A model generated the notes under the pieces. The model did no database searches, was not told where the DNA came from, and worked only from the letters and a program-made list of their open reading frames with translations. The position numbers were made by a program, and so were the translations under genes. Below are positions 45,983 through 61,065 of a DNA stretch of 64,000 nucleotides, piece after piece. The stretch's first letter is position 1, and the number at the start of each line of letters is the position of its first letter. The stretch is from Bartonella sp. HY038 (lineage in GTDB: Bacteria > Pseudomonadota > Alphaproteobacteria > Rhizobiales > Rhizobiaceae), in the NCBI RefSeq assembly GCF_014117425.1, contig NZ_CP059725.1:372001-436000 (forward strand). Reading direction: 5' to 3'.

Positions 45983-46877
45983 TGCTTCTTAAAGCCATCA
46001 GACGCAAATAAAGCTCTTGACGTTTTTGCCCCGTAATTGATGCAGCTTCTTGGGCAGCTTTTGGGGCTGGCATAGATTTTGCTAAATCAAGCAGCAAGGC
46101 GTCAATATCATTTGCATCAAAAGACTTTTCCTTAGCAAGCGGCCGACCAACCACCAAAACAATCTCGCCGCGAATACGATCAACCTCTGCATATTTTTGT
46201 GCCAAAATGCCTAAATTATCGCAGTCGAAAGTCTCAAAGGTTTTAGTAAGTTCACGGGTTAAAGCTGCAGGGCGATCAGCCCCGAAAACTTCCGCCATAT
46301 CGGCAAGGGTTTCAGATGCACGGTGGGGCGATTCATAAAAGATCAACGTTGTATCCATGTGGCTTAAATCTTGCAATTGCTTGATACGCGCCCCCTTTTT
46401 GGTTGGCAAAAAACCATTGAAGAAAAAACTATCAGTAGGTAAGCCAGTGGCAACAAGCGCGGTTAACAGCGCTGATGCACCGGGAATGGGGACAACTTTA
46501 ATTCCGGCTTCACGCGCTTGCGTAACAAGACGAAAACCCGGATCAGAGATCAAAGGCGTGCCGGCATCAGAAACAAGAGCCACAGATTTACCTGAAAGCA
46601 AGGATTCAATCAGCATTGGGCCACTTGTTTGCGCGTTATGCTCATGATAGCTAACGGCTTTTTTGTGAATGGCATAACGGTCAAGCAAAACCCGTGTTGT
46701 GCGCGTATCTTCACAAGCTAAGACATCACAAGCCGCCAAAACTTCAAGCGCGCGAATGGTGATATCGCCAAGATTGCCAATCGGCGTTGAAACAAGATAA
46801 AGCGCATTTTCAATTACTGGGGCTTGATAATTATGAGCACCGATAATGTAGCGCTTACTATCTTCATTCTGGGTCAT
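45972..46877 (-). CDS. rsmI: 16S rRNA 2'-O-methyltransferase RsmI
   Basis: RsmI methylates the 2'-hydroxyl of C1402 in 16S rRNA, tuning decoding. The 301-residue protein shows the tetrapyrrole-methylase fold: YLVSTPIGNLGDITIRALE near residue 28, ACEDTRTT, SDAGTPLISDPGFRLV, and FYESPHRASETL. It is co-transcribed with yraN. Confidence 0.97.
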   Translation of the reverse strand: MTQNEDSKRYIIGAHNYQAPVIENALYLVSTPIGNLGDITIRALEVLAACDVLACEDTRTTRVLLDRYAIHKKAVSYHEHNAQTSGPMLIESLLSGKSVALVSDAGTPLISDPGFRLVTQAREAGIKVVPIPGASALLTALVATGLPTDSFFFNGFLPTKKGARIKQLQDLSHMDTTLIFYESPHRASETLADMAEVFGADRPAALTRELTKTFETFDCDNLGILAQKYAEVDRIRGEIVLVVGRPLAKEKSFDANDIDALLLDLAKSMPAPKAAQEAASITGQKRQELYLRLMALRSNDT

Positions 46878-46949
46878 GTTTTTCTCTTAACTTATCGGCT
46901 TTGGTGCGTTTTTGCCAGTGTGTTGCCAACGCTAATGATTGTGTGTTGA

Positions 46950-47004
46950 CTATGTATTTTATAAAATTTGTGCCACGTTCTTGTTGACAAGAAGCATGGC
47001 ACAA
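46950..47004 (-). terminator. Terminator after the aspartate aminotransferase gene
   Basis: TTGTGCCA/TGGCACAA and the inner TTCTTG/CAAGAA form an interrupted 14-bp stem (46968-47004). On the minus strand it is followed by AATTTTATAAAAT. Confidence 0.6.
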
Positions 47005-47036
47005 ACACAATAGAATATAAGCTCAAGTCGCAATTT

Positions 47037-48323
<1,287 letters not shown>

Positions 48324-48479
48324 CTATGCGCTGATATGAAAAAAAGTGCAATGATCGCACAGCAATTTTACCAAAAAAAATGGCATTTAAAGGTTTTATT
48401 CAATTTATTATTAACGCAACAATAAATCTATTAAGAACAGTTTTAATTTATCATTATAGGACAAAATATATTTTAAAAA

Positions 48480-48511
48480 TAGAAATTTCTACCCGATCAT
48501 ACGGGTAGAAA
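48480..48511 (-). terminator. Terminator of the VWA protein gene
   Basis: TTTCTACCCG pairs with CGGGTAGAAA around a 6-nt loop, with a T-rich tract on the minus strand after the stem. Confidence 0.8.
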
Positions 48512-48528
48512 AATATCTTGAAATTTTG

Positions 48529-49647
48529 TTATTTTAATTGATCGTGTAAAGTTTCTTTTACAACGCTATCAAACGAATTATTGTCCTTATCGGGATTTAA
48601 TTTTTGCTCGGCAATATAGGCATCGCGCTTTTCAATGAGGGCAGACATTTCGGCTTCTAATTTGCTGCGCTCTTGCGATGTTTTTTCAACGATTGCATTT
48701 TTTTCTTCGCTAGATTTACCGCGCAGCTCATCGGGTAACGATGTTTCTTGCACCTCCTCAATTTTTTGCGTGCCATTTTTTACATCGGTAATTAAATCAT
48801 TGCCACCGGTTACCACTTCTTTGCTACCGCTTTTCTTAGAATAAAAACGTGAATTATCGATTTGAACTGGTGCTGGCGCTTCTGCCTTCTCTTCCATTTT
48901 ATTCGTGAGTGCTTCACGTTCGTCATGATTGCCATAAGGCAAAACAGTTTTATCAATTTTTCGTTGGATAACAATGATTTGGTCATCATAAGGTGTGTTA
49001 ATCACGGTAATTTTGCCACCATCTTGCGGTATTGGCATATAACGACCATGGCCAAGTTGAGCTATTTCGCGCCAAATCTTTTTGGTTTCCCTATCATCTC
49101 CCGCTTGTATAGTATTAACAATGATACCATCAGCAACAGCGCGTTTTAACACGTTGGGGTAAAGCGGTGCATTGGGGTAGTCCATATGGGGCGGCGCATC
49201 ACCAACAAGGAAAATAATGCGTTTTGTATCATGGCCTTTGGTCCATTCAAGCTTGCGTACAGCTTCATCAAGGGCTTCATTTACCGATTCTGGAGTATCA
49301 CCGCCACCGTCAGCTTCAAGCTTGGTTAATTTACCATATAAGCCTTGTACATCGCTGCTCATATCATAGGTTTTAATGATATATTCATCACCCCGATCGC
49401 GGTAAGCAATAAGTGCCATACGAATTTCAGCATCGGGATTAACATCAATAATGGTATTGGCGATTGACCAAATTTTTTGCTTTGCACCATCAATCAAACC
49501 CGCCATAGAGCCGGTCGTGTCAAGCACAAATGCAACTTCAACCTTTTGTTTGTTATTGCTTTGTTCAGCACTTGCGTGAAAAGCAAAAGTTGAGGTTATA
49601 GCAGTTATAAAAATAGTTTTTACAAATAAATTAATAGGTTTTAGCAT
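48529..49647 (-). CDS. Secreted von Willebrand factor type A domain protein
   Basis: A 372-residue exported protein with a signal peptide (FVKTIFITAITSTFAFHASA) and a VWA domain whose MIDAS motif is DTTGSM near residue 40, followed by the GDTPESVNEALDEA segment that completes the metal site. The C-terminal ~120 residues are polar and helical (DELRGKSSEEKNAIVEKTSQ). It stands alone, so the partner is unknown. VWA domains usually bind proteins in a metal-dependent way; no specific function is claimed. The start MLKPINLF follows GGAAATAG. Confidence 0.85.
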   Translation of the reverse strand: MLKPINLFVKTIFITAITSTFAFHASAEQSNNKQKVEVAFVLDTTGSMAGLIDGAKQKIWSIANTIIDVNPDAEIRMALIAYRDRGDEYIIKTYDMSSDVQGLYGKLTKLEADGGGDTPESVNEALDEAVRKLEWTKGHDTKRIIFLVGDAPPHMDYPNAPLYPNVLKRAVADGIIVNTIQAGDDRETKKIWREIAQLGHGRYMPIPQDGGKITVINTPYDDQIIVIQRKIDKTVLPYGNHDEREALTNKMEEKAEAPAPVQIDNSRFYSKKSGSKEVVTGGNDLITDVKNGTQKIEEVQETSLPDELRGKSSEEKNAIVEKTSQERSKLEAEMSALIEKRDAYIAEQKLNPDKDNNSFDSVVKETLHDQLK

Positions 49648-49794
49648 ATCTATTTCCATTTTATTGTTGATATTTTAATAATGGAAAATAAATGCGGCTT
49701 AATATTGTTTGAATTTAAAATAAATGAGTTATTAATATGTATTGTTGTATTTTTTTTGTTTGATTGGTAAATAAATATATAATGATAATATTTA

Positions 49795-49833
49795 CAAAAA
49801 ATAGGGCATTTTACTAGTTATGTAAAATGCCCT
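49795..49833 (-). terminator. Terminator at the end of the riboswitch operon
   Basis: AGGGCATTTTAC pairs with GTAAAATGCCCT around a 7-nt loop, followed on the minus strand by ATTTTTT. It lies 11 bases after the pseudoazurin stop codon. Confidence 0.92.
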
Positions 49834-49843
49834 AATTTAAAAC

Positions 49844-50281
49844 TTATTCGCCAGCGTCAATACGCTCAAATATTTCATCGAAACGCTTGCGTGCAACGCC
49901 TGGTTGTTTTACTTCGCGGTAAGCATCTGGCATGGTAGCTTCGCCAACCTTAATCATCATGATCATGCCCATGGCATAATGCGGTGTACATTTAATGCCG
50001 TAAAAACCAGGTACGTCAAAAGTAATTTCGCGTTCTTCATCAATTTTGCCCATAAAAGGTGTTGCGCCTTCTGGCATCATTTCTTTGATTGACGCGGCAT
50101 TATGCGAGCGATGGGTTGCCTTGAAGATAACCTTGTCACCAGGCTTAATTTTAAGATAATCTGGCTCAAAAACCATTGGCCCCTTATCGCCACGATTAAG
50201 CATTTTTACCTCAAAAGTTTCAGCCATAACCGGAGCTGAAAGGAACATAAGGCCGATAATGGCCAATAAAACACGTAACAT
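49844..50281 (-). CDS. Pseudoazurin (periplasmic type I copper protein)
   Basis: Pseudoazurins are small blue copper electron carriers, usually donating to nitrite or nitrous oxide reductase. The 145-residue protein has a signal peptide (LRVLLAIIGLMFLSAPVMA), the His ligand in HRSHNAASI, and the Cys/His/Met ligands in KCTPHYAMGM. Its ATG directly follows the ATPase stop codon (TAA then ATG), so it belongs to the transport operon. No denitrification gene is in the window, which makes its partner unclear; a role in redox handling of the transported metal or complex is speculation. Confidence 0.92.
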   Translation of the reverse strand: MLRVLLAIIGLMFLSAPVMAETFEVKMLNRGDKGPMVFEPDYLKIKPGDKVIFKATHRSHNAASIKEMMPEGATPFMGKIDEEREITFDVPGFYGIKCTPHYAMGMIMMIKVGEATMPDAYREVKQPGVARKRFDEIFERIDAGE

Positions 50282-51100
50282 TTAAGCACAATTCCTTATT
50301 GTTTGTGATGCGCCTGTTTCTAAAGGCATTTTCTTGATTTTTTGTGGTGCAATATAGCTAATGTTCAAATTGCCGCATTTGCGCGTCATGATTTCAACTT
50401 CAACCTTGAATATTTGACGAATAGTTTCCTCTGTCATTACTTCTTTCGGGCTGCCTTGTGCAAATATTTTTCCTTGATCAAGCACAGCAATTTCGTCACA
50501 AAACATCGCAGCATGATTAAGGTCATGAAGGGCGGCAATGATTGTTAAACCTTGATTGCGGACAAGGCTTAAAAGTGCCATTTGGTGATGAATGTCAAGA
50601 TGGTTAGTTGGTTCATCAAGAAGCAATATTTCAGGCTGTTGAGCAAGTGCGCGTGAAAAATGCACGCGTTGTTTTTCACCCCCCGACAAAGTTTGCCAAA
50701 TGCGATCCGCCATTTTGAGCATATCTGTTTTGGTAAGCGCTTCATTAACAATGTCATGATCTTTTTGGGAAAAAGGCGATAATACAGATAGATAAGGTGT
50801 GCGACCTAGTTCTGCAGCTTGGCGCACACTGATACGCTCGCCTGTATCGGCATGTTGTTCAATAAAAGCAAGGCATCTGGCAATTTCGATGCGTTTTAAA
50901 GAATTTAATGGCTTATTGTTAAGGAAAACGCTGCCTTGAGAAGGCTTTCTGATCCCTGTTAGCAGCGACATGAGCGAACTTTTCCCCGAACCATTGGGAC
51001 CGATAATTCCTAAAAAATGGCCAGGCTTTGCCTGTAGCGAAACATTGTTGATAATTGTTTTGTCACCAACACTCCAAAAAAGATTTTCAGCTCTTAACAT
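50282..51100 (-). CDS. ABC transporter ATP-binding protein (FecE/BtuD type)
   Basis: ATPase of a type II importer for iron complexes, haem or corrinoids. The 272-residue protein has Walker A GPNGSGKSSLM near residue 36, the signature LSGGEKQRVHFSRALA, Walker B ILLLDEPTNHLD, and the switch His in AALHDLNHA. It starts 2 bases after the permease stop codon and abuts pseudoazurin. The operon's cobalamin riboswitch favours a corrinoid or cobalt substrate. Confidence 0.92.
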   Translation of the reverse strand: MLRAENLFWSVGDKTIINNVSLQAKPGHFLGIIGPNGSGKSSLMSLLTGIRKPSQGSVFLNNKPLNSLKRIEIARCLAFIEQHADTGERISVRQAAELGRTPYLSVLSPFSQKDHDIVNEALTKTDMLKMADRIWQTLSGGEKQRVHFSRALAQQPEILLLDEPTNHLDIHHQMALLSLVRNQGLTIIAALHDLNHAAMFCDEIAVLDQGKIFAQGSPKEVMTEETIRQIFKVEVEIMTRKCGNLNISYIAPQKIKKMPLETGASQTIRNCA

Positions 51101-51102
51101 GA

Positions 51103-52124
51103 TTACATCTCTTTCTTGGTAACGAGAATAAACGCAAATATTGGCGCGCCGACCAAGGCAGTTATAACGCCGATTGGTAGAACTTGCCCCGGTACAATGA
51201 TACGTGAAACAATATCAGCAGCAATTAAAAATATTGCGCCTATAACGGCTGATACTGGAATAAGCCTTTGGTGGCGTGTACCAACAAGTGCACGTGCTGC
51301 ATGGGGAATAACAAGGCCAACAAAGCCGATAGCACCAACAAGGCTTACCATGACTGCGGTCATTAAAGCGCAGCAAGTGATTAAAATGCCGCATACCCAG
51401 CGCACTGGGATACCAAGCGATGCGGCGGAATCGGTGCCAAAGGCAAAGGCATCAAGCGCGCGTGCAAAAAATAGGCAGATAACAAAACCGATAATCGTTA
51501 CTGGAAAGGCGATTGACACATCTACCCAACGTACAGTGGATAGATTACCCATCAACCAGAACATAATGCCGCGTGCCTGTTCTGCATCGGCGCCGCGTGT
51601 AACGATAAAAGCGGTGAGAGCGTTAAAAAATTGGGCACCGGCAATACCGGCAAGAATAACCGCTGCTGCACTGCGGCCAATGCGAAAGGCAAGAAGGGCA
51701 ACACAGACAAAAGCAACCAAAGCACCAATAAAGGCGCCGCCTGACATGGAAATTACCCCCAAGCCTGTTCCCATAATCATAACGCAAACAGCACCAGTTG
51801 AGGCGCCTGCAGAAATACCCAACAAATAAGGATCAGCAAGTGGATTTCTTAATATGGATTGTAACACCACGCCACATAGCGCAAGGCTTGCACCGCACAG
51901 GCGCCAACCACTGCGCGGCTCAAACGATAATGCCAGATTATACCTGCATCAATAGCGCTTATATCCACTTTCGCATTAAATAATTTTAAAGCAATAGTCT
52001 CATAAACCGTTTGAAAGGGAATGGTCGTTTCACCGATTGCTGCCCCCATCATAAGAGCCAAGCTAATGAGTATAATTGCAATAAAAGTAAACATAAGCGG
52101 TTTCAATCGGAAAGTATATGACAT
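51103..52124 (-). pseudogene. FecCD/BtuC-family permease, frameshifted
   Basis: Permease of the importer, normally about 340 residues with ten helices. The 5' part (MSYTFRLKPLMFTFIAIILI to IIWHYRLSRAVVGACA) and the 3' part (GVVLQSILRNPLADPYLLGI onward, through IGFVGLVIPHAARALVG) match the family but lie in different frames. The break is at 51893-51894: one more C on the plus strand (G on the coding strand) would read VVGACAGASLALCGVVLQSI. The rest is intact, so this is a very recent loss or a sequencing error. If real, the ATPase and three binding proteins would lack a permease here. Confidence 0.88.
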
Positions 52125-52144
52125 TATTTCGACCAGCCCATTAA

Positions 52145-52188
52145 TATATACTCCGCAATTGCTTTAATTATACAGTGCGGAGTATATA
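52145..52188. repeat. 13-bp inverted repeat between binding protein C and the permease
   Basis: TATATACTCCGCA and its exact complement are separated by 18 bases, just before the permease start. In the transcript this would form a stable stem-loop without a T-run. It could protect the upstream binding-protein mRNA or limit read-through to the permease. Confidence 0.7.
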
Positions 52189-52245
52189 AGATATTATATT
52201 TGTTAAATTATTTCATTTGCTTTTAAGGCAAATGCGCTTGTTTTA

Positions 52246-53283
52246 TTATTTATCAAGGTTGAATTTTTCCAAAGCGTCAGCAATGATTTCAATGCCTTCG
52301 ATTGTATGGATTGAACCATTCATAGCTTGCACATCAAGCTCAATGATATGTTTGTTTTTAGCAGCATCCATCAAGCTTGCAACAGGATCTTTTTGTAAAA
52401 ACTCTTCCTTGACCTTGATATCATCGGCAGGAAAACGGCGGCGTTCCATGGTTGCAGCAACGATAATTGTTGGGTTAGATTTAACGATTGTTTCCCAACC
52501 AACCATTGGCCATTCATGTTCTGAAGCAATAATGTTTTTAATGCCAAAAACTTCAAACATATAGTTTGGTGCGCCCTTTGTACCTGCAACATAAGGATCC
52601 ATTTCTAATTCCATGCTTGAATACCACATAAAACCAGAAATTTTATCTTTTGGTAGGCCTTTTACTTTTTCAATTGCTGCTTTTTCGCGAGCTTTTAAGC
52701 TATTGATTACTTCTTGTCCGCGATCTTGCACGTCGAAAATTTTTGATAATTCGTCGATTTCTTTATAGATCAAAGCCATTTCAAACGGTGTGCTACGAAG
52801 ACCATCACTACCGGCTGAGTTATCCTTGCCATCGCAATCAGCAGGTGAATTGTAAACAGGAATCTTCACCTCGTTAAATTGCTCATAAGTGCCAATGGTA
52901 CCAACAGGGCCGACAAGCCACTCATATTGGCTAGCAACAAGGTCAGGCTTTTTATTAACAACTGATTCAAAGCTTGGAACATTGTCAGCAAGACGCTCAA
53001 TCTTGCTGTTTACTTCGGTAAATTCAGGCAAAACTGGGTTAAACCAAAGTGCGGTTGCCTTCACCTTATCAGAAAGACCAAGAAGATATAAAATCTCTGT
53101 GCTGTTTTGACCTGCAGAAACGACACTTTGCGGTGCTTTATCAAAGGTAAGAACCCGTCCGCAATTGTTAATTGTTAACGGGTATTGGGTTTTTTCAGCT
53201 TGCGCAAACGAAACTGTTGCAAAAAGGCAGGCAGCAATTGCAGTGCTTGCCTTAACCAAATTTCCGAACTTTAAATTGAACAT
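52246..53283 (-). CDS. Periplasmic binding protein C of an iron-complex/cobalamin-type ABC importer
   Basis: A 345-residue TroA/BtuF-like binding protein with a signal peptide (KASTAIAACLFATVSFAQA). The fold markers are YPLTINNCGRVLTFDKAPQS at the N-terminus, QNSTEILYLLGLSDK, KPDLVASQYEWLVGP and ADALEKFN at the C-terminus. Two other copies lie upstream in the same operon. A Cys in NNCGR and another in SPADCDGKDN are kept in all three and may form a disulfide. It is nearest to the permease. A short hairpin (TTCACA/TGTGAA, 53304-53319) lies in its 5' leader. Confidence 0.9.
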   Translation of the reverse strand: MFNLKFGNLVKASTAIAACLFATVSFAQAEKTQYPLTINNCGRVLTFDKAPQSVVSAGQNSTEILYLLGLSDKVKATALWFNPVLPEFTEVNSKIERLADNVPSFESVVNKKPDLVASQYEWLVGPVGTIGTYEQFNEVKIPVYNSPADCDGKDNSAGSDGLRSTPFEMALIYKEIDELSKIFDVQDRGQEVINSLKAREKAAIEKVKGLPKDKISGFMWYSSMELEMDPYVAGTKGAPNYMFEVFGIKNIIASEHEWPMVGWETIVKSNPTIIVAATMERRRFPADDIKVKEEFLQKDPVASLMDAAKNKHIIELDVQAMNGSIHTIEGIEIIADALEKFNLDK

Positions 53284-53421
53284 GATATAATCCTGAATGG
53301 GTTTTCACAATAATGTGAACTTATTACTCACGTTTCAAATTGGCTGTCAATGAAGAATATCTAGCTTATAATTCTTCTAATTTTCTTGTGACAATGTTAC
53401 GGGATACATATTTAATCAATA

Positions 53422-54477
53422 TTACTCTTTTAAATTGCTTGCAGTTATATTCATTTTACTAATGGCATCCGCTAAAGCTTCAATGCCTTTAATTGTATGA
53501 ATAGTACCATTCATCGCTTGCACATCAAGTTCGATGATATGATGTTGCTTTGCTGCAGACATGAGGCTTGCGACTGGATCATTTTGTAAAAATTCTTCCT
53601 TGACCTTGATATCATCGGCAGGAAAACGGCGGCGCTGCATTTTGGCAATGACGATAATTGATGGGTCTGCTTTTACAATGGTTTCCCAACCAACATTTGG
53701 CCAGTCAAAATCGGATTTGATGATATTATCAATACCAAGGGTTTTAAACATATAACCAGGTGCCCCCAATTGTCCTGCAACATAGGGTTCCATCTCCATT
53801 GCTGGACTTGAATACCACATGAAACCAGATAGTTTTTGCGGTGGTAAAGCCTTTATGCGGCTAATTGCCGCTTGTTCACGATCCTTTAATTCAGCAATTA
53901 GTTTTTGGCCGTGTGGTTCAACATTAAAAATACGTGCTAAGTCATCAATTTCTTGATAGATCATCGTCATGTTAAAGGGCTTACTGCGCAAGCCATCGCT
54001 ACCGGCTAAATTATCCTTGCTTTCGCAATCCGCAGGTGAGGTGTAAACTGGAATATTTATTTCTTCAAATTGGTCGTAACCGGCGGCTGCACCAACCGGC
54101 CCAATCACCCACTCAAATTGGTTGGCAATAAGGTCGGGCTTTTTACTGATGATCGCTTCATAGCTTGGCACATCATTGGAAAGGCGCTCAACCTTATCAT
54201 TTTGCTCCTTAAATTCTGCCATGACTGGTTGAAACCAAAGAGCTGTGCCTTTTATCTTGTCACCAAGACCTAAGAGATAAAGGATTTCTGTGCTATTTTG
54301 ACCAACCGAAACAACACTTTCTGGTGCTTTTTGAAATTCCAAGACGCGGCCGCAATTATTAATTTTTAAAGGATAAGCGCTTTGTTCAGCACTTTGCGCT
54401 GATGTAAGGCTTAAGCCTAATAGTGAGATGGCGGCAAAAGTAGCTTTGGGTAAATAGTCTTTTAAAGTTGCTAACAT
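53422..54477 (-). CDS. Periplasmic binding protein B of the same importer
   Basis: A 351-residue paralogue of the flanking genes with a signal peptide (FAAISLLGLSLTSAQSA). It keeps NNCGRVLEFQKAPESVVSVG, ILYLLGLGDKIKGTALWFQP, the SPADCESKDN Cys and the GFMWYSSPAMEMEPYV segment. All three copies share RRRFPADDIKVKEEFLQ-like sequence, here identical to copy C, suggesting that B and C are the most recent duplicates. Likely ligand: a metal complex or corrinoid. Confidence 0.9.
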   Translation of the reverse strand: MLATLKDYLPKATFAAISLLGLSLTSAQSAEQSAYPLKINNCGRVLEFQKAPESVVSVGQNSTEILYLLGLGDKIKGTALWFQPVMAEFKEQNDKVERLSNDVPSYEAIISKKPDLIANQFEWVIGPVGAAAGYDQFEEINIPVYTSPADCESKDNLAGSDGLRSKPFNMTMIYQEIDDLARIFNVEPHGQKLIAELKDREQAAISRIKALPPQKLSGFMWYSSPAMEMEPYVAGQLGAPGYMFKTLGIDNIIKSDFDWPNVGWETIVKADPSIIVIAKMQRRRFPADDIKVKEEFLQNDPVASLMSAAKQHHIIELDVQAMNGTIHTIKGIEALADAISKMNITASNLKE

Positions 54478-54526
54478 AGGATATTTTCCTTGTCGAGAAA
54501 GACAATATTAAAATTGGTTTACATTT

Positions 54527-55609
54527 TTAATGGAGGTTATTGGGCGCTATCTGTGCCCCGCTCATTTGATTTTCTTGTATCTTGATAAGTGCGTCTGCAA
54601 GCTGTTCAATACCGTCAATGGTATGGATTGAACCATTCATTGCTTGAGCGTTTATGGTTATGATGCGCTGGTCTTTAACCGCACTCATCAGCTTGGTAAC
54701 CGGATCACCTTGTAAGAAGTTAATTTTTACATCGGCATGATCGGCAGGAAAGCGTTTGCGCTGCATATCGGCAATTACCAAAATTGTTGGATTATCCTTG
54801 GCAATTGTTTCCCAACCCATGGTTGGCCAATCGAAGTCCGATTGAGCAATATTTTTTATGTTAAGAGTTTTAAACATATAGGCAGGTGCGCCAAGACGAC
54901 CACCAATGAAGGGATCTGCTTGCAGTGTGGAACTTGAAAACCACATAATTCCGGAAATATCTTTGATATTAAGGGATTTTGCCTTTTCAATTGCGGCTTT
55001 TTCTCGCGCCTTTAATGTTTCAATGACTTTATCACCACGCTCTTCCACGTCAAAAATTTGGGATAATTCATGGATTTCTTTATAGATAATGTCCATGTCA
55101 AAGGGTGTAGTGCGTAAACCATCATTGCCGGCAAGATTATCCTTACCCTCGCAATCTGCGGGGGATGTGTAAACTGGAATGGTTAGATCATCAAATTGGC
55201 TATAGGTTGCAGTTGCACCAACTGGGCCAATTGTCCATTCATATTGATTGGCAATCATATCTGGCTTTTGGGCAACTACAGATTCAAAGCTTGGTTCATT
55301 ATCCGCAAGACGTTTAATTTGTGCATCAATATCTTTAAACTCAGGCATGACAGGCTCAAACCATAAGGCCGTGCCTTTAACCTTGTCACTAAGGCCTAAA
55401 AGATAGAGAATTTCTGTGCTGGTTTGACCAACCGAAACCACATTTTGCGGCTTCTTTTTAAATTCTATAACTCGGCCGCAATTATTAAGTTTTAGTGGAT
55501 ATTGGGTAGAGGCAGCCTCTACCGTGTTATTTAATGCGATAAGCGGTAAAATAACCAGCGAAGACAATGTTAAAACTTTTTGAAAAAAAGAAGATGTCGG
55601 GATTAGCAT
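54527..55609 (-). CDS. Periplasmic binding protein A of the same importer
   Basis: A 360-residue paralogue, the most divergent of the three and first in the operon after cbiM. The start MLIPTSSFF follows GGAAAACCT, and gives a normal signal peptide (LTLSSLVILPLIALNNTVEA). It keeps NNCGRVIEFKKKPQNVVSVG, ILYLLGLSDKVKGTALWFEP and SPADCEGKDN, but the C-terminal FPADHADVKINFLQGDP differs from copies B and C. The C-terminus carries a short extra tail (QMSGAQIAPNNLH). Confidence 0.9.
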   Translation of the reverse strand: MLIPTSSFFQKVLTLSSLVILPLIALNNTVEAASTQYPLKLNNCGRVIEFKKKPQNVVSVGQTSTEILYLLGLSDKVKGTALWFEPVMPEFKDIDAQIKRLADNEPSFESVVAQKPDMIANQYEWTIGPVGATATYSQFDDLTIPVYTSPADCEGKDNLAGNDGLRTTPFDMDIIYKEIHELSQIFDVEERGDKVIETLKAREKAAIEKAKSLNIKDISGIMWFSSSTLQADPFIGGRLGAPAYMFKTLNIKNIAQSDFDWPTMGWETIAKDNPTILVIADMQRKRFPADHADVKINFLQGDPVTKLMSAVKDQRIITINAQAMNGSIHTIDGIEQLADALIKIQENQMSGAQIAPNNLH

Positions 55610-55736
55610 AGGTTTTCCGTAAGATTTTAAAATGAAGAAATAGCCGCATATAAAACCGCAGTGAAACGCCGCAATTTTAAAAGGGAGGTAAATCAAGGCG
55701 ATTTACACTCCGGCTAATTAGAAAAATTTTGGGCTT

Positions 55737-56456
55737 TTAATTGATTGCTTGGTAAAGCCGTTGCTGAATAAAGGGGGAATTTGATAATTTATGCAGGCTT
55801 TTAGCGATGAATAATACCCCAAGATCAATGAGCGGTTCCACCAAGATAACGCTCATATAAGCAATGGCAAAACTGCCAATATTAACTGCTGTCTCACTAC
55901 TAAAGCCTTCGCCGTAAAATGCCCAAAACGCCACCCAAGCAACAATACCACCTTGATAACTGGTCGATAAAGCTAAGGCTTGTTTATAACTTATATCTTT
56001 GTAGGCGGTATTTTGTGGAATGATTTTATTGGCAAGCCACGCCATAGCAAAAAGCGGCATCAATAGCGTTGTGACATTCATACCATATTGGGGGAGATCA
56101 AAGGGCGCAAAAAATAACCCTTGTAAGAGGAGACCTAATGTTAGCCCTATCGCTGTTGGAGCGACACCAAAAATTAAAAATAATGTTGATCCAAGGATAA
56201 GATGAACTTCTGAAACGCCCACTGGATGATGGGGGAAGATTTCAAAAAAAGTAAAAACAAGGGCAGTGGTAATGAGGCTGCGCGCCAAAAGAGATATGAT
56301 ACCGCCATCTTTGCTTTTTTGATGAAAGCTATCAGAGGTTTTTTGAGGAAAAATTGTCTTTAATGCCAATTTGGCTGTAATACCAAGAGCTGCAAATGCC
56401 GTTGCATAGCTCAAAATAATTTTAGCGCCGGAAACGACGCCCGGTTCAATATGCAT
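55737..56456 (-). CDS. cbiM: CbiM-family energy-coupling factor cobalt transporter permease
   Basis: CbiM proteins are the substrate-binding component of ECF-type cobalt importers. The 239-residue protein starts with the conserved N-terminus MHIEPGVVSGAKIILSYATA, where the His is a metal ligand after Met1 is exposed. GVSEVHLILGSTLFLIFG and LPQYGMNVTTLLMPLF match the rhizobial family, and about seven membrane helices are present. The start follows AGGAAGG; a longer frame upstream only reads through the riboswitch. cbiQ and cbiO partners are not in the window. Confidence 0.88.
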   Translation of the reverse strand: MHIEPGVVSGAKIILSYATAFAALGITAKLALKTIFPQKTSDSFHQKSKDGGIISLLARSLITTALVFTFFEIFPHHPVGVSEVHLILGSTLFLIFGVAPTAIGLTLGLLLQGLFFAPFDLPQYGMNVTTLLMPLFAMAWLANKIIPQNTAYKDISYKQALALSTSYQGGIVAWVAFWAFYGEGFSSETAVNIGSFAIAYMSVILVEPLIDLGVLFIAKSLHKLSNSPFIQQRLYQAIN

Positions 56457-56520
56457 TTTTATGCCTTCCTGCACCCACCGTGCAAAAATAATTGAGCAAA
56501 AGGCGAAACGCCTGATGATT

Positions 56521-56751
56521 GACGGCAGGTCTCCTGGCTTGCGGAATGGCGATAACAAACAACCTTCCCATTCATTAGATTGGCTTAATTTAAAGCCAAT
56601 CCTAAACAGTGGTTTGCAGCTTTTACTGCATCATATTTGTTATCTACCGCTTACAGTTGCGGGGGCAGCCATGGCTTGGGTCCTTTATAAAGTTAACCCG
56701 TCCCATGTTCCCTATTAGTCCCCTATGAAGTCCATCATTCGGGGAACCGTC
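56521..56751 (-). promoter_or_regulatory. Cobalamin (B12) riboswitch
   Basis: On the minus strand the leader before cbiM contains the B12-riboswitch landmarks in order: P1 (GACGG with CCGTC), the core GCTGCCCCCGCAACTGTAAG, AACCACTG (the GCCACTG element), and the B12 box GCCAGGAGACCTGCC near the 3' end. Adenosylcobalamin binding should repress downstream expression, placing the whole operon under cobalamin control. It ends about 65 bases before the cbiM ATG. Confidence 0.95.
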
Positions 56752-56804
56752 GCAGCTAGGTTAACTATTTCGTATAATAACGTCAATCAAAAAGATGTAA
56801 TGCT

Positions 56805-56828
56805 ATTGTTATGGTATAACATAACAAT
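56805..56828. promoter_or_regulatory. Candidate Fur/Zur-type operator upstream of the riboswitch
   Basis: Perfect 9-bp arms, ATTGTTATG and CATAACAAT, flank GTATAA. The GTTAT/ATAAC core resembles Zur/Fur-superfamily boxes. It is about 54 bases upstream of the riboswitch 5' end, where the promoter should be. A single arm recurs at 56935-56943. Confidence 0.4.
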
Positions 56829-56945
56829 TGTAAAGAAAAATTTTTATGAATATTTCTTGCCGATAAATTGCGATCAAGAGTTTAGCTGTAAAAAGTCAGA
56901 TTTTGTAATTAGCGTATTGGTTATTAGAGGCTAACATAACAATCT

Positions 56946-58131: not shown

Positions 58132-61065
58132 ATGGTGACAACAAGGGAAGCGATGCTGGTTTTACTAATCCTGCTCCCCTTCATAGGCAGTGCAATAATT
58201 GGCTTTTTTCGCTCCACCGCTAAGAATAATGAAGCGTGGTTTGCAGGCTCTGTTGCGCTTTTTGGTCTGTTGCTCACTATCATGCTTTATCCCTCGATTA
58301 TGAATGGTGATGCGGTACGCTTACAAATAGATTGGTTGCCGCAATGGGGAATCAATATTATTTTGCGGATGGATGGTCTTGCTTGGCTGTTCTTGCTGAT
58401 GATCAATGGTATTGGTCTATTGGTTGTAATCTATGCGCGTTATTATATGGATCCTGCTGATCCGGTACCACGCTTCTTTTCTTTTTTCCTTGCCTTTATG
58501 GGGGCAATGACCGGTATTGTTTTATCTGGCAATATCATCATGCTGGTGATTTTTTGGGAATTAACCAGTATTTTCTCGTTTTTGCTGATTGGGTATTGGT
58601 ATCATAATGCTAGCGCCCGTGACGGCGCGCGTATGGCCTTAACGGTTACTGGCCTTGGCGGTTTTGCCCTTTTGGTTGGTATGCTTTTATTGGGGCATAT
58701 TGTTGGTAGTTATGATCTTGATGTGGTGCTAAAGTCTGGTGATATTATTCGCTCAAGTCCACTTTATTTGCCAGCCCTTATCCTTATTCTTTTAGGTGCG
58801 CTTACCAAAAGTGCGCAATTTCCATTTCATTTTTGGTTGCCAAATGCTATGGCCGCGCCAACCCCGGTGTCAGCCTACTTGCATTCGGCAACTATGGTCA
58901 AGGCAGGGGTTTTCTTACTCGTGCGGCTTTGGCCAGTGTTAGCCGGCACTGACGCATGGTTTTGGATCGTTGGTCTATCTGGGCTAACCACTTTATTTCT
59001 TGGCGCTTATTTTGCTATGTTTCAGCAGGATCTTAAAGGGCTTCTTGCTTATTCAACCATTAGTCACTTAGGGTTAATCACCACATTGTTAAGCCTTGGC
59101 AGTCCGCTTGCTTGTGTCGCGGCGATTTTCCATATGGCTAATCATGCGACTTTTAAAGCATCTTTGTTTATGGCAGCAGGTATTATAGACCATGAAACTG
59201 GCACGCGTGATATGCGCAAGCTCACTGGGCTTGCACGCTATATGCCAATAACTGCGGCACTTGCGATTATTGCGAGTGCCGCAATGGCAGGCGTGCCGTT
59301 GTTAAATGGTTTTCTTTCCAAGGAAATGTTCTTTGCCGAGGCTATTGAAACCCATGTTGAATCGTGGCTTGATTTGGCAACGCCTTATATTGCGACCGTT
59401 GCTAGCCTATTTTCCGTTACCTATTCTGTCCGGTTTATTCATGGGGTATTTTTTGGGCCTAAACCACAAGATCTACCAAAAACACCGCATGAGCCACCCC
59501 ATTTTATGCGCTTGCCAATAGAGTTATTGGTAGGGCTTTGTCTGCTTGTTGGCATTTTACCTAATTGGAGTATTGGGCCAGCCCTTTCAGGTGCGGTAAA
59601 ATCTGTGCTTGGTAGTGCGACACCTCATTATAGCCTTGCCCTTTGGCATGGTTTTAATACGCCGCTTATCATGAGCTTAATTGCCCTTGTAGGCGGATTA
59701 TTGCTTTATATTGTTGGGCGTCGTTATTTCCTTTCTTGCGAAGATGGACCACCTTTTTTCCGTCATATCAAAGGTCAGCGAATTTTTGAGCGGGTTTTGG
59801 TTACCATTTCATGGAAATGGGCGCGTTGGGCCGAACAGTTTTTTGGTACACGCCGTTTGCAAACGCAGGTGCGATGGGTGATACTTGTGCCGATTGCGGC
59901 TGTTTTTGCCGCCATTGCCATTATTGGTATTATGCCGGGTGATTTGCCGCTAACCACGATTGATCCTGTTTTTGCGATCTTTTGGATTATTGGTGGTACA
60001 TGCGCCCTTTGTGCTGCTTGGCAAGCAAAGTTTCATCGTTTAGCATCTTTGATGTTGGTTGGTGGTGCCGGGCTCATGACATGCGTTACTTTCTTGTGGC
60101 TTTCCGCGCCGGATTTAGCACTAACCCAATTATTGGTGGAAGTCGTAACAACCGTTCTTTTGCTTTTGGGCTTACGTTGGTTGCCAAAGCGCTGGCAAGA
60201 TCCTGATCCCATGCCTGCCGGACTATCGGCACGCTTTCGCCGTTTGCGAGATTTGTTAATTGCTATTATTGGTGGTTGCGGTTTGGCTTGGCTTTCCTAT
60301 GCGATTATGACAAGGGGCGCTTTAGATGCCGGCGGTGATACTATTGCTGAGTTTTTCTTGAAAAACGCCTATGTTGGCGGCGGCGGAACCAATGTTGTTA
60401 ATGTGCTTCTAGTTGATTTCCGTGGTTTTGATACAATGGGTGAAATATGCGTCCTTGGTATTGTGGCGCTGACGGTTTTTGCACTTCTACGCCGATTTAG
60501 ACCAGCTTCTGAAAGTATTGAATCGCCCTCGCAACAACGCATTCAAACAGCGTTTGATATTAATCAGCCAGAGCGTGAAGAAGGCGATACCTTGCAGGAT
60601 TATTTGACCATTCCGCAAATAACCATGCATTGGCTATTTCCAGCGATTATTGGTCTTGCTATTTATATCTTTATGCGCGGCCATGATTTGCCGGGCGGTG
60701 GTTTTGCCGCCGGTGTTACCATGGCAATTGGCTTTATCTTGCAATATCTTGCGTCTGGTACACGCTGGGTTGAAGATCATTTAACTATTTTGCCAGTACG
60801 TTGGATGGGCTTTGGTATATGTGTTGCCCTTGCAACGGGCGGCGCTTCGTGGTTTTTCGGTTATCCATTCCTGACCACCTATTTTAATTACCTTGAAATT
60901 CCCTTTATTGGTAAAATGCCAACTGCTTCTGCTTTATTGTTTGATATGGGAGTTTTTGCCTTGGTTGTCGGAGCAACAGTTTTGATGCTGATTGCGCTTG
61001 CTCACCAATCCATACGCCGCTACCGCGTGCGTAAAGAAGAAACCATTGTGAAAGAGGATAATTAA
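58132..61065 (+). CDS. mnhA: Na+(K+)/H+ antiporter subunit A/B fusion (MrpA-MrpB, PhaAB)
   Basis: The largest subunit of the multisubunit Mrp/Pha cation/proton antiporter in the inner membrane, related to the NuoL/ND5 subunit of complex I. The 977-residue protein includes the NuoL-like core (FPFHFWLPNAMAAPTPVSAYLHSATMVKAGVFLL near residue 240) and a C-terminal MrpB-like domain (from about residue 820: IPQITMHWLFPAIIGLAIYIFMRGHDLPGGGFAAG). Such A/B fusions are typical of rhizobial Pha systems. It is the first gene of a six-gene operon, so B is not separate. Confidence 0.95.
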   Translation: MVTTREAMLVLLILLPFIGSAIIGFFRSTAKNNEAWFAGSVALFGLLLTIMLYPSIMNGDAVRLQIDWLPQWGINIILRMDGLAWLFLLMINGIGLLVVIYARYYMDPADPVPRFFSFFLAFMGAMTGIVLSGNIIMLVIFWELTSIFSFLLIGYWYHNASARDGARMALTVTGLGGFALLVGMLLLGHIVGSYDLDVVLKSGDIIRSSPLYLPALILILLGALTKSAQFPFHFWLPNAMAAPTPVSAYLHSATMVKAGVFLLVRLWPVLAGTDAWFWIVGLSGLTTLFLGAYFAMFQQDLKGLLAYSTISHLGLITTLLSLGSPLACVAAIFHMANHATFKASLFMAAGIIDHETGTRDMRKLTGLARYMPITAALAIIASAAMAGVPLLNGFLSKEMFFAEAIETHVESWLDLATPYIATVASLFSVTYSVRFIHGVFFGPKPQDLPKTPHEPPHFMRLPIELLVGLCLLVGILPNWSIGPALSGAVKSVLGSATPHYSLALWHGFNTPLIMSLIALVGGLLLYIVGRRYFLSCEDGPPFFRHIKGQRIFERVLVTISWKWARWAEQFFGTRRLQTQVRWVILVPIAAVFAAIAIIGIMPGDLPLTTIDPVFAIFWIIGGTCALCAAWQAKFHRLASLMLVGGAGLMTCVTFLWLSAPDLALTQLLVEVVTTVLLLLGLRWLPKRWQDPDPMPAGLSARFRRLRDLLIAIIGGCGLAWLSYAIMTRGALDAGGDTIAEFFLKNAYVGGGGTNVVNVLLVDFRGFDTMGEICVLGIVALTVFALLRRFRPASESIESPSQQRIQTAFDINQPEREEGDTLQDYLTIPQITMHWLFPAIIGLAIYIFMRGHDLPGGGFAAGVTMAIGFILQYLASGTRWVEDHLTILPVRWMGFGICVALATGGASWFFGYPFLTTYFNYLEIPFIGKMPTASALLFDMGVFALVVGATVLMLIALAHQSIRRYRVRKEETIVKEDN

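What the first reader, a model, noticed from the sequence alone, without database searches (positions are those of the whole stretch)
49844..56751. Cobalamin-riboswitch operon joining CbiM, three binding proteins, an ABC importer and a pseudoazurin
Seen: a B12 riboswitch leads a uninterrupted minus-strand run of cbiM, three TroA/BtuF-like binding proteins, a FecCD permease, its ATPase and a pseudoazurin, ending at one terminator. Known: B12 riboswitches repress corrinoid and cobalt uptake genes; CbiM is the cobalt component of ECF importers. Inference: this is one cobalt/corrinoid acquisition locus combining an ECF-type and a BtuCD-type route. cbiQ and cbiO are absent, so CbiM may work alone or with distant partners.
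Basis: partly seen in the sequence, partly recalled or inferred. Interest (0 to 1): 0.75.

Follow-up and report, generated by a model that had tools for sequence, protein, structure and literature searches.

The report
Cobalt uptake operon under B12 riboswitch
A vitamin-B12-sensing RNA switch in a Bartonella-like bacterium leads a gene row that most likely imports cobalt for making B12; the parts are known, but here two importers usually found apart sit behind one switch, and one gene reads as broken in this assembly.

Summary
A cobalamin riboswitch (RF00174, 90.8 bits) is followed on the minus strand by a CbiM-family protein, three Peripla_BP_2 binding proteins, a FecCD permease, its ATPase and a pseudoazurin, ending at a terminator-like hairpin. 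The permease is split by a frame change; the sister genome (probably Bartonella sp. HY329) has it whole.

The core is best read as a CbtJKL-type cobalt ABC importer, not BtuFCD: S. meliloti pSymB, home of the described cbtJKL, has the same riboswitch-SBP-permease-ATPase unit. Among the 80 best named relatives, 78 have a riboswitch just upstream, 79 permease and ATPase, 47 a pseudoazurin right behind; none has CbiM, none three binding proteins. This CbiM subfamily is elsewhere solitary and riboswitch-led (16 of 19 loci, and pSymB). So the window joins two usually separate cobalt units behind one switch. The three binding proteins duplicated within the Bartonella lineage. The host has CobN, so cobalt is needed. 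The cbt-linked pseudoazurins form their own clade apart from 19 of 20 sampled others: the freshest point, mechanism unknown. Verdict: new variant of a known kind; substrate inferred, not shown.

The parts
56507..56766 (-). Cobalamin riboswitch aptamer, RF00174
   Evidence: cmscan 90.8 bits, E 3.5e-21; second copy in the genome before nrdHI
56464..56483 (-). Likely expression platform: hairpin (56471-56483) directly before a Shine-Dalgarno-like GGAAGG (56464-56469)
   Evidence: same hairpin at the same place in L033, L081, L091 and in 7 CbiM loci, absent from the 13 other cbt loci printed; fold of 56440-56530 not more stable than shuffles (z -1.0). Function inferred
55737..56456 (-). CbiM-family (PF01891) membrane protein, 239 aa, starts MHIE
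54527..55609 (-). Substrate-binding protein 1 (CbtJ-like)
   Evidence: PF01497 104 bits; tree
53422..54477 (-). Substrate-binding protein 2 (CbtJ-like)
   Evidence: PF01497 112.4 bits; tree; model pLDDT 90.9
52246..53283 (-). Substrate-binding protein 3 (CbtJ-like)
   Evidence: PF01497 122.7 bits; 58% identical to the S. meliloti pSymB protein
52145..52188 (-). Intergenic stem-loop between the binding-protein block and the permease
   Evidence: 13-pair stem in the fold of 52124-52246, z -3.65, 0 of 200 shuffles as stable
51103..52124 (-). FecCD permease (CbtK-like), split in this assembly by a frame change
   Evidence: whole in G001 and in the HY329 protein
50282..51100 (-). ABC ATPase (CbtL-like), 272 aa
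   Evidence: PF00005 113.3 bits; 59% identical to the S. meliloti pSymB ATPase
49844..50281 (-). Pseudoazurin, cbt-linked clade, copper ligands His60 Cys98 His101 Met104
   Evidence: TIGR02375 133.1 bits; ligands by alignment and clade
49802..49834 (-). Intrinsic-terminator-like hairpin with T tail
   Evidence: 13 pairs, 5 G-C, TTTTTT tail (21 such sites found in 10 kb, 10.9 expected by shuffling, this one has the longest stem)

Best explanation
A B12-repressed cobalt-uptake operon. Shown by sequence: riboswitch, gene order, family membership, and orthology of binding protein, permease and ATPase to the locus on S. meliloti pSymB that fits the described cobalt importer CbtJKL. Inferred: when adenosylcobalamin is low the leader lets cbiM and the downstream genes be made; the three periplasmic proteins bind Co(II) or a small cobalt chelate with different affinity or preference and all serve the one FecCD permease-ATPase pair; CbiM, which keeps the N-terminal Met-His and a second invariant His that a metal-binding S-component of this fold would need, moves cobalt as a second, simpler route without CbiQO; cobalt then goes to CobN and the cob pathway. 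The pseudoazurin is a conserved periplasmic blue-copper partner of this importer whose task is not known. In this particular assembly the permease reads as broken, so if the break is real the strain would depend on CbiM.
For: Riboswitch upstream of the binding-protein gene in 78 of the 80 best named relatives and in 12 of 13 fetched neighbourhoods at 44% identity or more, against 0 of 7 at 41% or less. In a tree of 50 binding proteins the first group, S. meliloti pSymB included, is apart from the second with 100/100. S. meliloti pSymB has one such place, with riboswitch (119.6 bits), at 66.7 kb, outside the 122-1130 kb deletion of a strain described as keeping the region that holds cbtJKL (passages of PMC12239276). 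CbtJKL is described as a Co(II) importer under an AdoCbl riboswitch (passages of the review PMC7689651). The host encodes CobN (1190 bits), cob-type methylases and two proteins with B12-binding domains. CbiM relatives are themselves riboswitch-led in 16 of 19 loci, plus pSymB. dN/dS against G001 is 0.01-0.12 for the genes of the run.
Against: No transport or binding data for any of these proteins; the original cbtJKL paper is not held, so the function rests on a review and later papers, and the identity of the pSymB locus with cbtJKL is by position and riboswitch, since that record carries no gene names. The best NCBIfam match of the binding proteins is the siderophore protein EitA (306.6 of a cut-off 640). 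Among fold neighbours are proteins for heme, siderophores, molybdate and B12. The permease is out of frame here. The review says that CbiM plus CbiN is the minimal transporting set; there is no CbiN in this run, and CbiN was not searched for elsewhere in the genome; transport by this CbiM subfamily on its own has not been shown in anything I read. Two members of the binding-protein clade lack a riboswitch nearby (L041, L141).
Confidence: 0.8

Rival explanations
1. Corrinoid importer (BtuFCD-like): the operon salvages B12 or cobinamide rather than cobalt.
For: B12 riboswitch control; TroA/BtuF fold family, V. cholerae BtuF among the fold neighbours and a weak profile match to it (33.4 bits).
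Against: BtuF, BtuC and BtuD models far below cut-off: 21.5 of 234 (binding protein 2 only), 173.9 of 334 (C part of the permease), 143 of 281. No BtuB over cut-off in the genome. The host has the cobaltochelatase and cob-type methylases. CbtJKL of S. meliloti was first taken for a cobalamin transporter and then reported to carry cobalt (review passage).
Confidence: 0.1
2. Iron or siderophore importer of the EitABC kind that has come under B12 control.
For: EitA and EitC are the best NCBIfam models (306.6 and 303.9 bits); some database records name the relatives iron complex transport or iron ABC transporter.
Against: Both below the curated cut-offs of 640 and 485. The nearest relatives without the riboswitch are a separate clade (100/100) with other residues at conserved positions such as 129, 136, 150 and 161. 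B12 control of iron uptake has no clear logic.
Confidence: 0.08
3. The pseudoazurin is simply the electron donor of copper nitrite reductase and sits in the operon by chance or for want of another promoter.
For: The host has NirK (515.7 bits) and this is the only pseudoazurin match in its genome; copper ligands and most of the basic positions compared are kept.
Against: Pseudoazurin follows the ATPase within 400 bases in 47 of 80 named loci. The 53 cbt-linked proteins form a clade with one other, apart from 19 of 20 sampled others (2 label changes, 0 of 500 shuffles as low). Genomes G057 and G087 have both kinds and NirK; G036 has both kinds and no NirK match. Against this, only two residues separate the groups cleanly and the basic positions differ little.
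Confidence: 0.35
4. In this strain the ABC importer is dead because the permease frame is broken, and CbiM alone carries cobalt.
For: Single-base difference near 51897, the only length difference within genes of the run against G001. The permease cluster that holds the HY329 protein reports 3194890 as its longest contig, although the three binding proteins are also on a 3387109-base contig (Bartonella sp. HY761), so the state of the permease in HY761 is open.
Against: Low dN/dS in both permease parts and in the downstream genes; a one-base error in an assembly is common; the sister genome is whole. The genome has ten other FecCD-family stretches, whose kinship to cbt was not tested.
Confidence: 0.3

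Closest known systems
CbtJKL cobalt ABC importer of Sinorhizobium meliloti (pSymB)
   Same: B12 riboswitch, binding protein, FecCD permease, ATPase in this order; 58, 60-69 and 59% identity; same binding-protein clade
   Different: S. meliloti has one binding protein, no pseudoazurin at the locus but a SAM-type methyltransferase as next gene, and its riboswitch-cbiM unit lies 0.5 Mb away; the window has three binding proteins, CbiM in front, pseudoazurin behind, and a split permease
CbiM/NikM S-component of CbiMNQO and NikM(N)QO ECF importers
   Same: Pfam PF01891, N-terminal Met-His, second invariant His, fold match to 4m58 and 5x3x_M
   Different: far below every NCBIfam CbiM model listed (at most 26.7 bits, cut-offs 172-200); profile finds no PDB sequence; no CbiQ or CbiO alongside; CbiN not searched genome-wide
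EitABC putative siderophore importer
   Same: best NCBIfam match of binding proteins and ATPase
   Different: scores about half of the cut-offs; the riboswitch group is a separate clade from the relatives without riboswitch; no named EitA was put in the tree
Pseudoazurin of denitrifiers
   Same: TIGR02375 over cut-off, four copper ligands
   Different: separate clade; Ala at 63 where others have Glu (52 of 53 against 18 of 20) and Arg at 30 where others have Lys (49 of 53 against 17 of 20)

Membership tests
Cobalamin riboswitch RF00174 | covariance model over the gathering score, full length | tested here: met
   90.8 of 31.5 bits, model 1-189
Cobalamin riboswitch RF00174 | ligand-dependent control of the downstream genes | not testable with these tools
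   hairpin next to the Shine-Dalgarno site is only suggestive
CbtJKL cobalt importer | orthologous binding protein, FecCD permease and ATPase in the order J-K-L | tested here: met
CbtJKL cobalt importer | B12 riboswitch in front | tested here: met
   in the window CbiM lies between riboswitch and binding proteins
CbtJKL cobalt importer | intact permease reading frame | tested here: not met
   split in this assembly, whole in G001; so the window's copy is a CbtJKL-type locus with a broken or misread permease
CbtJKL cobalt importer | Co(II) transport | not testable with these tools
   needs uptake or binding assay
BtuFCD corrinoid importer | NCBIfam BtuF, BtuC, BtuD over cut-off | tested here: not met
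   21.5/234, 173.9/334 (C part of permease only), 143/281
BtuFCD corrinoid importer | BtuB receptor in the genome | tested here: not met
   best TIGR01779 score 125 of 599.7 among 20 TonB-receptor matches; receptors unlike E. coli BtuB could be missed
EitABC | NCBIfam EitA and EitC over cut-off | tested here: not met
   306.6/640 and 303.9/485
CbiMNQO cobalt ECF importer | CbiM-family S-component (PF01891) with N-terminal Met-His and second His | tested here: met
   the role of these residues is recalled from NikM2/CbiM structures
CbiMNQO cobalt ECF importer | S-component fold of CbiM/NikM | tested here: met
CbiMNQO cobalt ECF importer | CbiQ and CbiO present | tested here: not met
   none at the locus; single CbiQ-family hit in the genome beside a bioM-like gene
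CbiMNQO cobalt ECF importer | CbiN present | not tested
   no CbiN-like gene was assigned in the run; the genome was not searched for it
CbiMNQO cobalt ECF importer | CbiM model of NCBIfam over cut-off | tested here: not met
   at most 26.7 against cut-offs of 172-200
Pseudoazurin | TIGR02375 over cut-off and His-Cys-His-Met copper site | tested here: met
   133.1/109.85; ligands
Pseudoazurin | electron transfer to copper nitrite reductase | not testable with these tools
   NirK present in the genome

The most novel reading that the evidence does not exclude
The cbt-linked pseudoazurin is a dedicated, B12-regulated component of cobalt import: a blue-copper protein that works with the CbtJKL importer in the periplasm, for example by keeping cobalt in the transported redox state or by metal exchange at the binding protein, and in this Bartonella group the whole is joined with the CbiM route and a set of three binding proteins under one switch.
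Probability: 0.3. Interest if true: 0.65.

Novelty: new variant of a known kind. Interest (0 to 1): 0.42.

Why it matters
Cobalt is scarce and toxic, and how bacteria take it up for B12 is known for few systems. The window shows that two importers that relatives keep as separate riboswitch units can be merged behind one switch, and the comparison turns up a pseudoazurin clade tied to cobalt import in 47 of 80 loci examined. If that protein takes part in uptake it would give blue-copper proteins a role in cobalt supply, and it can be tested by removing one gene in a laboratory rhizobium.

Tried and rejected
Single-protein scan of genome contigs with binding protein 2 found no relative (15 stretches matched a pattern, none confirmed); the alignment A1 worked. 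The idea that honey-bee Bartonella keep a decayed cbiM behind the riboswitch was tested with a CbiM profile on the 900 bases behind the riboswitch of 11 Bartonella loci: best E 0.35, rejected. Scoring the riboswitches of window, L033 and 11 Bartonella loci against a cbt-type and a CbiM-type profile gave higher cbt scores for all 13, but the profiles rest on 68 and 12 sequences and are not comparable; origin of the window's riboswitch left undecided. A PDB sequence search with the CbiM profile found nothing, with the single protein only hits at E 0.61 or worse. Promoter-like sites: 43 found, 29.3 expected (sd 5.1) by shuffling; not used. Looking for another cupredoxin in loci without pseudoazurin: of 31 loci listed (the 30 without pseudoazurin, plus pSymB) 12 had a same-strand frame close behind the ATPase, and 10 of these 12 were scanned: methyltransferases in three, a transketolase-like protein in one, six without a match, no cupredoxin.

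Literature: ten searches. Three bear on pseudoazurin or cupredoxin with cobalt or cobalamin (44: 2 papers; 82: none; 96: 178 papers, 20 listed); none of the listed titles or of the passages read ties the protein to cobalt uptake, but most of the 178 were not seen and subscription papers are not held. No paper was read whole; passages only of PMC7689651, PMC12239276, PMC4207669, PMC2667541, PMC3766115, PMC3732241 and PMC9409073; the rest were seen as listings.

What was left out before counts: one search lists 46 places; three are the window's own, the 20 stretches fetched hold 25, and 18 (30% identity or less) were not examined. The 80 named loci are the best 80 of 543 confirmed. The binding-protein tree took proteins from 41 of the 101 comparison loci. 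CbiM loci L074-L078 (weak hits) and G074 (not fetched) were left out of the CbiM alignment. The pseudoazurin tree used 20 of 43 over-cut-off places that are not cbt-linked, and counted as cbt-linked L105, which has the pseudoazurin behind the binding protein without a permease found. The riboswitch pattern agreed with Rfam in the 22 loci checked and in three more (L105, L141, L150), but it missed the Rfam riboswitch of one CbiM locus (L055, in L170), so counts made with it could be low.
Full report
What is there. On the minus strand of the window, from 56766 down to 49802, lie a cobalamin riboswitch (RF00174, 90.8 bits), a CbiM-family gene, three Peripla_BP_2 binding-protein genes, a FecCD permease, an ABC ATPase and a pseudoazurin, then a 13-pair terminator-like hairpin with a T tail. 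From the coordinates, gaps between genes are 127, 49, 138 and 121 bases down to the permease, then 2 and 0 bases. The gap before the permease holds a 13-pair stem-loop (whole-gap fold z -3.65, 0 of 200 shuffles as stable), which could set different mRNA stability for binding proteins and permease (inference). That it is one transcript is likely but not shown.

The permease is split. Its N part reads in the frame of 51849-52124 and its C part in that of 51103-51870. Aligned with G001, the one other genome of the genus among the 101 searched, the stretch 46007-56840 shows 8 length differences; one, of a single base near 51897, is in the permease, the other seven lie outside the genes on my list, one of them, of 24 bases at 46928, left of the stretch whose genes I listed. 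By the coordinates both parts are in one frame in G001. A 340-residue permease is recorded for Bartonella sp. HY329, with a longest contig of the same length as G001 contig 1, so G001 is probably HY329 (inference). dN/dS between window and G001 is 0.01-0.12 for the genes of the run, 0.07 and 0.05 for the two permease parts. The break is therefore recent or an error of the assembly. Another near relative, HY761, holds the three binding proteins; the state of its permease could not be told.

What the ABC importer is. The binding proteins hit PF01497; the best NCBIfam model is EitA (306.6 of 640), BtuF is far off. Relatives in 33 of 101 genomes and in 80 named loci (the best 80 of 543) were examined. 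Of 20 neighbourhoods fetched, 12 of 13 with at least 44% identity to binding protein 2 carry a cobalamin riboswitch in front; of the 7 at 41% or less none does (one, L046, has a riboswitch before a different operon). A tree of 50 binding proteins separates the two groups with support 100/100; L041 and L141, which lack a riboswitch, fall in the first group. In the 80 named loci a riboswitch pattern lies within 1200 bases upstream of the first binding protein in 78, and permease plus ATPase are found in 79. The pattern agreed with Rfam in 22 of 22 loci and was found in 0 of 240 shuffled loci (single-base shuffles). Of the two exceptions, L141 (Wohlfahrtiimonas populi) has no riboswitch match; L150 has one 4.4 kb further up.

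S. meliloti 1021 pSymB holds one such place, with a 119.6-bit riboswitch (L079). The record has no gene table; the same place in strain ABS7 is annotated binding protein, iron ABC transporter permease, ATP-binding protein. The review PMC7689651 (passages) describes CbtJKL as a Co(II) ABC importer on pSymB under an AdoCbl riboswitch, first taken for a cobalamin transporter. PMC4207669 (passages) calls it the major cobalt uptake system. PMC12239276 (passages) puts it in region B154, which a strain deleted for 122,109-1,129,757 keeps; 66.7 kb is consistent with that. The original paper (Cheng et al. 2011) is not held. I conclude that the window's ABC importer is of the CbtJKL kind.

Three binding proteins. 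Window and G001 copies form a clade (98/85) inside a Bartonella clade (100/98), with the second B. tamiae copy as nearest sister (94/87). Copies 1 and 3 are 57-65% identical to copy 2, so the copies are old within this lineage and kept. In 80 named loci two have two copies and none has three; L039 and L035 also have two.

Pseudoazurin. It follows the ATPase within 400 bases in 47 of 80 loci; three more have it placed otherwise, 30 lack it. A tree of 73 pseudoazurins puts all 53 cbt-linked ones (98/98) with a single other (G007) and apart from 19 of 20 others: 2 label changes, 17.9 expected from shuffles, 0 of 500 as low. Some rows, among them L039, L043, L141 and the G007 one, have long branches and an unsure place. 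His, Cys and His are kept in all; Met in all cbt-linked ones and 18 of 20 others. Two positions separate the groups, and the basic positions compared differ little. The host has one pseudoazurin match, this one, and a NirK 2.35 Mb away, so service to nitrite reductase cannot be excluded here. Genomes G057 and G087 have both kinds of pseudoazurin and NirK; G036 has both kinds and no NirK match.

Need for cobalt. The genome has CobN (1190 bits), six TP_methylase matches, two of which read by eye as CobI- and CobJ-like, and two B12-binding proteins in frames of 716 and 1260 codons whose sizes fit methylmalonyl-CoA mutase and MetH (not scanned further). Its only other cobalamin riboswitch precedes nrdH and nrdI, named by eye, of a class Ib ribonucleotide reductase that would spare B12. 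No BtuB reaches its cut-off.

Regulation. In Bartonella the aptamer is followed about 40 bases on by a short hairpin GCAC-GGTGG-GTGC just before the Shine-Dalgarno site (window, L033, L081, L091); 7 CbiM riboswitches share it, while the 13 other cbt leaders printed have a different sequence at the same place. Control at translation start is the likeliest mode (inference).

Verdict. The fresh lead is the cbt-linked pseudoazurin clade; three literature searches on it (the last seen only in part) showed no description in the open-access library.

Noticed in passing
L001:1501-1775 (G000:C1:960586-960860): The genome's second cobalamin riboswitch (101.8 bits) precedes nrdH- and nrdI-like genes (named by eye), so the B12-independent class Ib ribonucleotide reductase is probably B12-repressed.
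   Followed up: partly
L079:8825-9604, L035:10147-10917 and 19 of the 80 named loci in the operon's orientation: A SAM-type methyltransferase is a second recurrent gene near cbt operons, the next gene in S. meliloti; six Agrobacterium-group loci have a more distant one on the other strand.
   Followed up: partly
L141: A cbt-like operon with pseudoazurin but without a cobalamin riboswitch in the gammaproteobacterium Wohlfahrtiimonas populi, perhaps a lateral transfer.
   Followed up: no
L081, L083, L087 between riboswitch and binding protein: Honey-bee-type Bartonella have about 400-600 bases with a short open frame right after the riboswitch hairpin; no match to CbiM.
   Followed up: partly
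G007:C1:431346 (L216): A 1.1 Mb genome of the same family keeps a pseudoazurin that falls in the cbt clade (long branch) though the binding-protein search found no match there; possibly a relic.
   Followed up: no
window 58132-61065: A 977-codon frame on the plus strand reads by eye as an MrpA-type sodium/proton antiporter subunit, start of a separate gene row.
   Followed up: no
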